In this document: positions 3,939-32,490 of the stretch, piece after piece
Numbering within the stretch: position 1 is the stretch's first letter
Layout: each line of letters starts with the position of its first letter
Source of the DNA: Enterococcus aquimarinus
GTDB taxonomy: Bacteria; Bacillota; Bacilli; Lactobacillales; Enterococcaceae
Length of the DNA stretch: 64,000 bases
Assembly: GCF_001885765.1 (NCBI RefSeq)
Contig: NZ_JXKD01000003.1
Span: forward strand, 124,001 to 188,000
Direction of reading: 5' to 3'
The notes under the pieces: generated by a model
Seen by the model: the letters and a program-made list of their open reading frames with translations, nothing else
Databases searched by the model: none
What the model was told of the DNA's origin: nothing
Position numbers and translations under genes: made by a program

Positions 3939-5273
3939 ATGAAAACATTGATTACAGAAACACACAAGCAACAAGCGATTTCGGCTATTCAACGATTAGT
4001 CAATATTCCCTCTTATTTACAAGAATCGGTTCCCGGTGCGCCTTTTGGCCAAAGCATTTTAGAGGCGCTTAAAGAATGCCTGACTCTTTTTCAAGAAGAA
4101 GGTTTCGAAACGTTCATCGATCCTGAAGGCTATTATGGTTATGCTGAAATCGGCGAAGGCGAAGAAATTTTTGGCGTTCTTTGTCATTTAGATGTCGTTC
4201 CAGCTGGCGACGTCTCATTATGGCATACCCCACCTTTTGAAGGCATCGTGGAAAACGAAACGATTTATGGACGTGGAGTCCAAGATGATAAAGGGCCAAC
4301 AATTGCCGCGCTTTATGCAGTTAAAGCCATTCTCGATGCGGGATTGACCTTGAACAAAAAAATCCGTTTTATTTTCGGTACAGATGAAGAAAACTTATGG
4401 CGTTGCATGGCGCAATACCATAAGAATGAAAAAAGTATTGATTTTGGTATCGCTCCTGATGCACAGTTCCCGGTGATTAACGCCGAGAAAGGCTTGCTCC
4501 AAGTTTATTTAACAGGAGAAGGCACAACGGAATTCACCTTAGCAGGTGGAACAGCTTTAAATGTCGTTTCAGATACCGCTACCTATAACGGTGAGCATGC
4601 CGATGTCATCGCACAAAAACTCACTGAACTGGGTTATGATTTCACGCAAAACGAGCAAGAAATTATTGTCAAGGGAAAAGCGGTACATTCAAAAGATGCA
4701 GCACAAGGAATCAATGCCAATACACGATTAGCAACTGCGATGGCTCCTTTCTATGACCATGACGGTTTGAATTTCTTAGGACAATTAGTGAAAAACGATG
4801 CCCATGGAACAAGCGTAGTCGGTGAAATGTCTGATGAAGCGTCCGGTCCGTTAACTTTTAATGTGGCAACCGTTTCGATTGATGCGCATGAAACCAAAAT
4901 CGGTATCGATATGCGTATTCCGGTCACCATTGATAAAGAGCGACTCGTTGAAAAACTAATCGAAAAAGCGAGTGAATACGGACTTACTTATGAAGAGTAT
5001 GATTTTCTTGACGCTCTTTACGTCCCAGCTGACTCTGAATTAATCACCACCTTATTAGGTGCTTATCGTGACATTACCGGCGATATGCGCCCGCCTCAAG
5101 TTTCGGGAGGAGCTACTTTTGCTCGAACAATGAAAAACTGTGTCGCATTTGGTGCGATGTTTGCCCAAACCAAAGACACCATGCACCAACCAAATGAAGC
5201 TTGGCCATTAGCTGAAATGGAACAAACCATGGTCATTTATGCAGAAGCGATTGCTCGTTTATGTTGTGAATAA
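3939..5273 (+). CDS. M20 family metallopeptidase, PepV/Sapep-like dipeptidase
   Basis: A 444-residue cytosolic metallopeptidase. The metal-binding motifs of family M20 are clear: HLDVVP at 83-88, GRGVQDDKGP at 111-120 and TDEEN at 148-152. The length fits the PepV/Sapep dipeptidases, which hydrolyse dipeptides with an unblocked N-terminus. A lid/dimerisation insert separates the two halves of the catalytic domain. GAAAGGTGAGG precedes the ATG. It follows the YfcC transporter closely and is probably co-transcribed with it. The downstream gap holds the inverted-repeat element at 5284-5733 and shows no obvious own terminator. Confidence 0.85.
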   Translation: MKTLITETHKQQAISAIQRLVNIPSYLQESVPGAPFGQSILEALKECLTLFQEEGFETFIDPEGYYGYAEIGEGEEIFGVLCHLDVVPAGDVSLWHTPPFEGIVENETIYGRGVQDDKGPTIAALYAVKAILDAGLTLNKKIRFIFGTDEENLWRCMAQYHKNEKSIDFGIAPDAQFPVINAEKGLLQVYLTGEGTTEFTLAGGTALNVVSDTATYNGEHADVIAQKLTELGYDFTQNEQEIIVKGKAVHSKDAAQGINANTRLATAMAPFYDHDGLNFLGQLVKNDAHGTSVVGEMSDEASGPLTFNVATVSIDAHETKIGIDMRIPVTIDKERLVEKLIEKASEYGLTYEEYDFLDALYVPADSELITTLLGAYRDITGDMRPPQVSGGATFARTMKNCVAFGAMFAQTKDTMHQPNEAWPLAEMEQTMVIYAEAIARLCCE

Positions 5274-5283
5274 AAATCTGGCT

Positions 5284-5733
5284 GTATAACTTTTAGTGTT
5301 GATGACTAAAATTCGTATTATTCCTCAACATTTTTTTCGGAATAGATCATTTTTTTGATGATAGACTCATCGCTTAAATATTTTCTTTTATCATTTCTTT
5401 CATTGTTTGACGAAATAGACATCAAAATGATATTCAATACTAGCGGACCGGAGAAAAACGCCTTGTGTCAGCTGCGTCAAAATACGAAATGTGAATGACT
5501 CTAGGTTTGTGCTTGAGCACTTGCCTAGAGTTTGAAGCTTTCGAGCTGAGCGTCACTCCAAGGCCTGATACTGTATCCGTCACTCGCTTTGCTCGAACGG
5601 CTTCAGCAATGGCAGGCTCGAAGCGGTCTCGCAACCCCCACACAAGGCGATTTTTCATAGGGTAGCGCGAAATGTCATCCACATTATTTGAAGAACCAAA
5701 AATCTTTCTTCATCAACACTAAATACGTTATAC
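5284..5733. mobile_element. 450-bp non-coding element with inverted termini (MITE-like or decayed IS remnant)
   Basis: The 519-base gap between the dipeptidase and eno has no credible gene but is bounded by inverted repeats. The left end is GTATAAC-TTTT-AGTGTTGATGA (5284-5305) and the right end, read on the other strand, is GTATAAC-GTATTT-AGTGTTGATGA (5710-5733): 18 identical positions around a 4/6-base spacer. The termini are reminiscent of ISL3-type ends, but that attribution is from memory and not verified. No transposase is present, so it would be non-autonomous. It contains a second nested inverted-repeat block (5441-5667). Confidence 0.5.
5441..5667. repeat. GC-richer inner block with its own inverted termini and hairpins
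   Basis: The arms read GAAAAACGCCTTGTGT at 5453-5468 and, on the opposite strand, GAAAAATCGCCTTGTGT at the right edge (about 5640-5656), differing by one inserted base. Inside is a near-perfect hairpin at about 5498-5529 (CTCTAGG...CCTAGAG with an inner GTGCT...AGCAC) and a pair of complementary arms around GCTTTCGAGC and GCTCGAAGC. Base composition is visibly richer in G and C than the flanks. An 80-codon open frame on the minus strand is probably a by-product of this structure. Confidence 0.5.
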
Positions 5734-5735
5734 AA

Positions 5736-5784
5736 AAAAACTTCTCCTTTTTCCGATTATTAATCAGAAAAGGAGAAGTTTTTA
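5736..5784 (-). terminator. Rho-independent terminator of the glycolytic operon
   Basis: AACTTCTCCTTTT pairs with AAAAGGAGAAGTT around a short AT-rich loop, with a U-run on the minus-strand transcript. It lies immediately behind the eno stop codon. Confidence 0.85.
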
Positions 5785-5792
5785 TTTAACGA

Positions 5793-32210: not shown

Positions 32211-32490
32211 ACAAAAAAAGTCCTTTTACGAGTTTAGAGACTCGTAAAAGGACGAATGATCGCGGTACCACCTTTTTTTGGAAGTTCACACTTCCCTTTA
32301 CCCTACATGCTTAACTTAGCAAATAAGTGTTCAAGATAACGATTGAACCTTTCGAAACCGCCTACTTATCGACGATTTATCCTTCAAGACCATCTTCATT
32401 CTTTCTTGTATCGTTCTTTTCACCAACCAGAACGTCTCTACAACACGCGAAAAAATTACTCTTCTTTGCAACGGATGAATATTTAAGTTA
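32211..32490 (-). promoter_or_regulatory. T-box riboswitch, methionine-type, controlling metQ
   Basis: The transcribed minus strand contains the T-box core AGGTGGTACCGCG (core at complement 32261-32273). The terminator stem follows: GTCCTTTTACGAG pairs perfectly with CTCGTAAAAGGAC, then seven U. Upstream, the Stem I features (AGAGA bulge, GGTTGGTG distal part, GAA...ATG specifier area) are in the expected order. ATG at complement 32397-32399 is the best specifier, meaning uncharged tRNA-Met is sensed. Terminator-antiterminator switching follows from knowledge of the family; the specifier is an inference from position. Confidence 0.9.

What the first reader, a model, noticed from the sequence alone, without database searches (positions are those of the whole stretch)
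5284..5733. 450-bp non-coding element with nested inverted termini and a GC-richer core
Seen: outer ends GTATAAC-(4 or 6 bases)-AGTGTTGATGA in opposite orientation, an inner pair GAAAAA(T)CGCCTTGTGT, and a hairpin CTCTAGG...CCTAGAG with a second inner stem. There is no transposase and the inner 230 bases differ in composition from their surroundings. Inference: either a MITE that captured or carries a structured segment, or two elements nested in one another. The ISL3 link is a recollection.
Basis: partly seen in the sequence, partly recalled or inferred. Interest (0 to 1): 0.6.

Follow-up and report, generated by a model that had tools for sequence, protein, structure and literature searches.

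The report
Mobile element carrying unknown structured RNA
The 450-bp oddity is a small, transposase-less jumping element of the ISL3 kind that carries a strongly conserved, folded RNA found in no RNA database searched; the same RNA recurs, often in many copies, in intergenic DNA across the lactic-acid-bacteria order.

Summary
The feature is real, but its borders are off. The element is 5280-5697 (418 bp), flanked by a perfect 8-bp duplication, AAAAATCT (5272-5279, 5698-5705). The ends are those of ISL3-family insertion sequences. The genome has about 15 copies and no recognisable ISL3 transposase, so this is an orphan MITE family. In Candidatus Enterococcus avicola the inner block sits between an ISL3 transposase gene and its right end, so the nested-element reading is not needed.

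The inner block (about 5447-5666, + strand) belongs to a conserved structured RNA family. A covariance model built from it matched 29 of 396 Lactobacillales genomes (16 genera); fuller scans gave 51 copies in one genome and 8 in an Aerococcus tenax record. On 59 copies the structure is 93% paired, with 841 double-compensated cells against 227 in shuffles. An independent alignment folded without a model gives the same structure. Rfam 15 has no match. Wobble pairs and stability favour the + strand. Most measured ISL3 insertions lie in terminator-like hairpins, with a fixed polarity. The RNA's function is unproven; I favour a cis-acting role in the element's transcripts.

The parts
5272..5279 (.). 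left copy of the 8-bp target duplication AAAAATCT
   Evidence: sequence; identical to 5698-5705
5280..5697 (+). the whole MITE, left end GGCTGTATAAC... to right end ...GAAGAACC; orientation as for the transposase of the related insertion sequence
   Evidence: ends shared with other copies and with ISL3 insertion sequences; 8-bp duplication
5280..5305 (+). left terminal inverted repeat, with a -10-like TATAAC
   Evidence: promoter reading is inference
5447..5666 (+). structured RNA, long form
   Evidence: covariance model R2, 113.8 bits, E 2.5e-26
5453..5467 (+). P1 stem, 5' strand (pairs with 5641-5656)
5641..5656 (+). P1 stem, 3' strand
5471..5476 (+). P2, 5' strand (pairs with 5630-5635; one pair is broken in this copy)
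5485..5489 (+). P4a, 5' strand CGAAA (pairs with TTTCG 5539-5543)
5498..5531 (+). P4b hairpin (ACTCTAGGT..GTGC..GCAC..GCCTAGAGT)
5546..5623 (+). P5 hairpin; its loop holds the optional domain of about 60 nt found only in long-form copies
5671..5697 (+). right terminal inverted repeat (degenerate)
   Evidence: alignment with right ends of other copies
5698..5705 (.). right copy of the 8-bp target duplication
   Evidence: sequence
   Evidence: lies outside the duplication

Best explanation
The window holds an old insertion of a non-autonomous ISL3-family transposable element (a MITE). It derives from an ISL3 insertion sequence that carried a structured RNA between its transposase stop codon and its right end, by loss of the transposase gene. 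It was mobilised in trans and made an 8-bp duplication between pepV and the eno terminator; no transposase that could move it is recognisable in this genome now. Shown by sequence: ends, duplication, copies, missing transposase, the insertion-sequence context in Ca. E. avicola, and the conserved fold. Inferred: the RNA is transcribed in the transposase sense, perhaps from the left end, and works as RNA. My preferred function (about 40%) is a cis-acting structured domain in the element's own or read-through transcripts that makes an insertion next to a terminator tolerable, by shaping termination, processing or stability. A trans-acting small RNA (about 25%) and a transposition cofactor (about 15%) are the next choices.
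For: Copies and duplications. ISL3-type ends. No PF01610 match in the own genome. Core directly downstream of ISL3 transposase genes in Ca. E. avicola. Conserved structure: 93% of cells paired, 841 double changes against 227 shuffled; the same fold recovered de novo from an unfitted alignment, 34 of 41 pairs doubly compensated. Sense strand: G-U 103 against A-C 41, sense fold more stable in 57 of 59. Spread over 29 of 396 Lactobacillales genomes, 51 copies in G161 and 8 in Aerococcus tenax CP127381. Terminator preference and polarity of ISL3 insertions.
Against: No expression data. Transposase-bearing ISL3 elements outside Ca. E. avicola lack the RNA, so it is not needed for transposition in general. 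About half of the copies lie antisense to both neighbouring genes, so there any RNA needs its own promoter, and the -35 region would have to come from flanking DNA. RNA-less MITEs with perfect duplications exist (L015, L028), though these may be later deletions.
Confidence: 0.72

Rival explanations
1. The RNA is a trans-acting small RNA or transposition cofactor made from the element (binding transposase, transposase mRNA or host RNAs).
For: Conserved internal loops and junction in addition to covarying helices; many copies per genome; many copies antisense to neighbours, so a cis effect on them is hard.
Against: No partner gene recurs nearby; genomes without any PF01610 match keep many copies; most autonomous ISL3 elements lack the RNA.
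Confidence: 0.35
2. The block is only a terminator-like or insulating hairpin of the insertion sequence (a 'mobile attenuator'), with no further RNA function.
For: In this lineage P1 is flanked by A5 and T5 runs, so both strands could terminate. In G232 and G149 the outer stems look like terminators. Insertion-sequence terminators exapted as attenuators are described, ISL3 among the families named (PMC2965389).
Against: P1 has no T run in other lineages. The avicola element has a separate terminator-like hairpin after the RNA. A plain terminator does not explain conserved single-stranded motifs and the three-way junction.
Confidence: 0.2
3. The core is an independent mobile element that inserted into an ISL3 MITE (nested elements).
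For: The core has its own long inverted stem. In G251 homology between copies stops within 2-6 nt of the RNA. In G002 and G112 the carriers seem to have other ends.
Against: In Ca. E. avicola and in the own genome it lies at the same place and orientation within ISL3-type elements. No core-specific target duplication was found. The same orientation relative to terminators is seen in all lineages together.
Confidence: 0.12
4. The covariation reflects a DNA-level structure (single-stranded or cruciform DNA used in transposition), not an RNA.
For: The element is mobile DNA and the outer stem is an inverted repeat.
Against: G-U wobble exceeds A-C by 103 to 41 and the sense strand folds better in 57 of 59; conserved loop motifs are strand-specific; ISL3 elements without the block carry conserved ends and clean 8-bp duplications.
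Confidence: 0.1

Closest known systems
ISL3 family insertion sequences (DDE_Tnp_ISL3, PF01610)
   Same: Terminal repeats (GGYTCTATAATATTTAGTGTTGG / right end CCAACACNATTTGACGAAGAGCC) and 8-bp target duplications; a transposase-bearing relative with the same core exists in Ca. E. avicola
   Different: No transposase in the element or recognised in this genome; carries a structured RNA that other ISL3 elements examined lack
MITEs with structured transcripts (BOX, RUP, SPRITE of pneumococcus; QMITE small RNAs of Coxiella; reviewed in PMC10969869)
   Same: Short, non-autonomous, multicopy, intergenic, structured
   Different: The RNA here is conserved by compensatory change across many genera and sits in elements with different ends
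'Mobile attenuators' of insertion sequences (PMC2965389)
   Same: Insertion-sequence-borne RNA structures at transcript ends; ISL3 among the families named
   Different: Those are terminators; this RNA has a junction and conserved loops and is not generally followed by a T run
Lacto-int and Transposase-resistance motifs (PMC2864571)
   Same: Candidate structured RNAs listed for Lactobacillales and phages, or named for transposases
   Different: Listed there without Rfam accession, so not comparable here; no phage or viral copies of this RNA were found
Transposon guide RNAs (omega RNA of TnpB or IscB, IS110 bridge RNA)
   Same: A structured RNA at the non-coding end of a transposon (recalled, a lead only)
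   Different: No recurrent protein near copies, no Rfam match, and a DDE transposase in the one autonomous context

Membership tests
ISL3 family (as non-autonomous derivative) | Terminal inverted repeats matching ISL3 elements | tested here: met
   Ends of copies against ends of transposase-bearing ISL3 elements
ISL3 family (as non-autonomous derivative) | 8-bp target duplication | tested here: met
   Window copy AAAAATCT; several own-genome copies 8/8 or 7/8
ISL3 family (as non-autonomous derivative) | DDE_Tnp_ISL3 transposase in the element | tested here: not met
   None in the element or recognised in the genome; present in the relative Ca. E. avicola. Filed therefore as a derivative (MITE), not as an insertion sequence
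ISL3 family (as non-autonomous derivative) | Mobilised in trans by an ISL3 transposase | not testable with these tools
   Needs a transposition assay
MITE | Short, no transposase, terminal repeats, several copies with target duplications | tested here: met
   418 bp; 15 core-bearing places; duplications
Any Rfam 15 family | Covariance-model match at gathering score | tested here: not met
   Window and 16 related loci; permissive scans show nothing credible over the core
Transposon guide RNA (omega or bridge RNA) | Linked RNA-guided nuclease or recombinase gene | tested here: not met
   No recurrent protein family within 1.5 kb of copies
Mobile attenuator or terminator | Stem followed by a T run at the 3' side | tested here: inconclusive
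   Present in the window lineage, absent in many others
Functional ncRNA | Expression as a sense transcript | not testable with these tools
   No transcriptome available

The most novel reading that the evidence does not exclude
A previously undescribed RNA class is carried as transferable cargo by terminator-targeting transposons of more than one kind across Lactobacillales, and acts as RNA (protein-binding, ligand-binding or catalytic) to make such insertions tolerable or to control transposition.
Probability: 0.4. Interest if true: 0.85.

Novelty: new variant of a known kind. Interest (0 to 1): 0.72.

Why it matters
MITEs are usually treated as inert debris. Here a MITE family carries an RNA whose helices are kept by compensatory change across many genera while the transposase is lost, so something appears to select for the RNA. 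The family is absent from Rfam 15 and present in up to about 50 copies per genome, so expression, structure probing and deletion tests are direct. The polarity and terminator preference of ISL3 elements seen on the way may also explain why such insertions are well tolerated.

Tried and rejected
Nested-element reading: not needed once the avicola insertion sequences were seen. Rfam families: none. Phage, viral or plasmid carriage: none except one decayed copy in Enterococcus, Listeria and related plasmids and the large Aerococcus tenax record. Protein partner: none. The orientation bias of RNA copies first looked like a clue to function, but transposase-bearing ISL3 copies show the same bias, so it is taken as insertion polarity. 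Integrase remnant beside the G010 copy: unique, dropped. First RNAalifold structure for P4a and P5: replaced after inspection and confirmed de novo. Strict empty site at pepV-eno: G002 and G001 have the eno terminator without the element, but their other neighbours differ, so this is only suggestive. Literature: no earlier description found. Names of most genomes are withheld by the tool, so families are given by handle.

Full report
What is there. Immediately before GGCTGTATAAC (5280) stands AAAAATCT, and the same 8 bases follow ..CATTATTTGAAGAACC (5697), read directly. The element is therefore 5280-5697 with a perfect 8-bp target duplication. It resembles an inverted left end and is probably the remnant of an earlier insertion next to the eno terminator hairpin (5731-5788).

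Copies. Blast of 5284-5733 against the own genome gives 33 places, and the covariance model finds 15 copies of the core. The left end is GG(C/T)TGTATAACTTTTAGTGTTGATGA; the right end is ATTCCATCAACACTATTTGCCGAAGAGCC. Besides the window copy, six own-genome copies with both ends readable have 8/8 duplications (L002, L006, L009, L011, L015, L028), L004 has one at slightly shifted borders, and two more have 7/8. Copies come in a long and a short form that differ by an optional domain of about 60 nt in the P5 loop. Short MITEs without the core exist (L015, L028). Identity over the long alignments is about 80-91%, so the family is old.

Relation to ISL3. The own genome has no PF01610 (ISL3 transposase) match. 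Ca. Enterococcus avicola (same genus, named through) has ISL3 transposase genes and pseudogenes followed directly by the same core and then by the right inverted repeat (protein identified). ISL3 elements of other Enterococcaceae (about 55-63% transposase identity) have matching ends but no core, and the ISL3 elements examined in other RNA-bearing genomes also lack it. The window element is thus best read as a transposase-less derivative of an RNA-bearing ISL3 element, not two nested elements.

The RNA. A model built from 17 copies of the two species found matches in 29 of 396 Lactobacillales genomes, 16 genera, nearly all over the full 165 positions and with E down to 1e-25 outside the own genome. 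Copies per genome are lower bounds there, because only a few candidates per genome were scored. A fuller scan gave 51 copies in G161 and 8 in the Aerococcus tenax record CP127381. In a sample of 399 Bacilli genomes the only hits were in Lactobacillales. Matches in f9 genomes (G360, G375) are weak (about 25-43 bits) and are tentative.

Structure. By inspection of 59 aligned copies the fold is: a long outer stem P1 with a conserved GGAG/CGGA-type internal loop; P2 (GCCAUG/CAUGGC); P3 (GGA/UCC); then a three-way junction. One arm is P4a (UGCAA/UUGCA and many compensated variants), a conserved internal loop UGUGAAU/UUGAAGC, and the P4b hairpin. The other arm is P5. On these 59 copies 93.0% of cells pair (shuffled 63.2%), 841 cells have changes on both sides (shuffled 227, sd 15), and the covariation score is 0.712 against 0.182 shuffled and at most 0.113 for slid partners. 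That alignment was fitted to an earlier form of the structure. A plain MAFFT alignment of 26 diverse copies, folded with no model, recovers the same helices, with 34 of 41 pairs doubly compensated. Noncanonical cells are G-U 103 against A-C 41, and the sense strand folds more stably in 57 of 59, which favours an RNA in the transposase sense. Rfam 15 has no matching family.

Carriers. In family f2 genomes (G036, G057, G168 and others) copies lie in ISL3-type MITEs (GGTTCTACAATATTTAACGTTGG ... CCAACGTTAAAAGAGGAAGAACC), some with readable 8-bp duplications, for example TGTTATAT and AAAATGAT. In G002 the copies sit beside remnants that resemble a DUF772 transposase (E = 0.19 only), with different ends. 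In G112 the ends differ again. These non-ISL3 carriers are tentative. No protein family recurs within 1.5 kb of copies.

Site choice. RNA copies have a convergent gene on their 3' side in 83 of 103 cases with a readable downstream gene; tandem contexts are 42 antisense against 15 sense (genes called by simple ORF rules). ISL3 elements bearing a transposase show the same bias, 51 of 60, so this is read as insertion polarity. Of 57 insertions with a duplication of at least 7/8, nearly all transposase-bearing ISL3, 36 lie in a hairpin plus T tract, against 30 of 342 control positions. The controls were not matched for composition.

How it probably works. Transposition in trans by an ISL3 transposase, with 8-bp duplications near terminators, is well supported by anatomy. 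The RNA's role is inference. It is conserved while the transposase is lost, lies in the 3'-untranslated position of the transposase in the one autonomous context found, and lives in elements that insert next to terminators. A cis role in transcripts of the element is my first choice (about 40%); a trans-acting small RNA (about 25%) and a transposition cofactor (about 15%) follow. No expression evidence was available.

Known relatives. It works like a MITE with a structured transcript (BOX, RUP, QMITE small RNAs; PMC10969869) and recalls insertion-sequence 'mobile attenuators' (PMC2965389). The RNA itself matches no described family I could test. Two older candidate motifs without Rfam accession (Lacto-int, Transposase-resistance; PMC2864571) could not be compared.

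Noticed in passing
L241-L300 and own-genome copies: ISL3 elements insert into intrinsic-terminator-like sites (36 of 57 against 30 of 342 control positions), with the right end facing the 3' end of a gene (51 of 60).
   Followed up: partly
L047 2437-2607; L302 2937-3069; L115, L116: A decayed copy of this MITE sits in 71 PLSDB plasmid records (mostly Enterococcus), in one case beside lnu(B)/lsa(E). It may mark an E. cecorum-like donor of that segment.
   Followed up: partly
left and right ends of ISL3 elements, e.g. L205, L241, L281: The left end holds a -10-like TATAAT and the right end of many intact ISL3 elements a -35-like TTGACA reading outward, so a circular junction would form a promoter.
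   Followed up: no
G161:C4, e.g. 638682 and 638922, 231456 and 231695: 51 RNA copies, about nine of the pairs being direct tandem pairs spaced about 240-265 bp.
   Followed up: no
L249: In G161 an ISL3 insertion sequence has jumped into an RNA copy, inside P4b.
   Followed up: no
L110, L138-L142 (G002): RNA copies with a long left arm of broken reading frames weakly resembling a DUF772 transposase, and ends like AATGYCTACYGAWTAA: possibly a second carrier type.
   Followed up: partly
L033 (G041): Tandem motif TTCGAGCAAAGCGAGTTACGG, like part of the optional domain of the long form, outside any recognised RNA copy.
   Followed up: no
window 32245-32480, minus strand: T-box leader (RF00230, 110 bits).
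   Followed up: no
L318, downstream of eno in Ca. E. avicola: Sequence that looks to me like the 3' end of a group II intron.
   Followed up: no
CP127381.1 (Aerococcus tenax): A 591-kb record labelled plasmid carries several genes usually found on chromosomes (rsmI, mscL); it may be a chromosomal segment.
   Followed up: no
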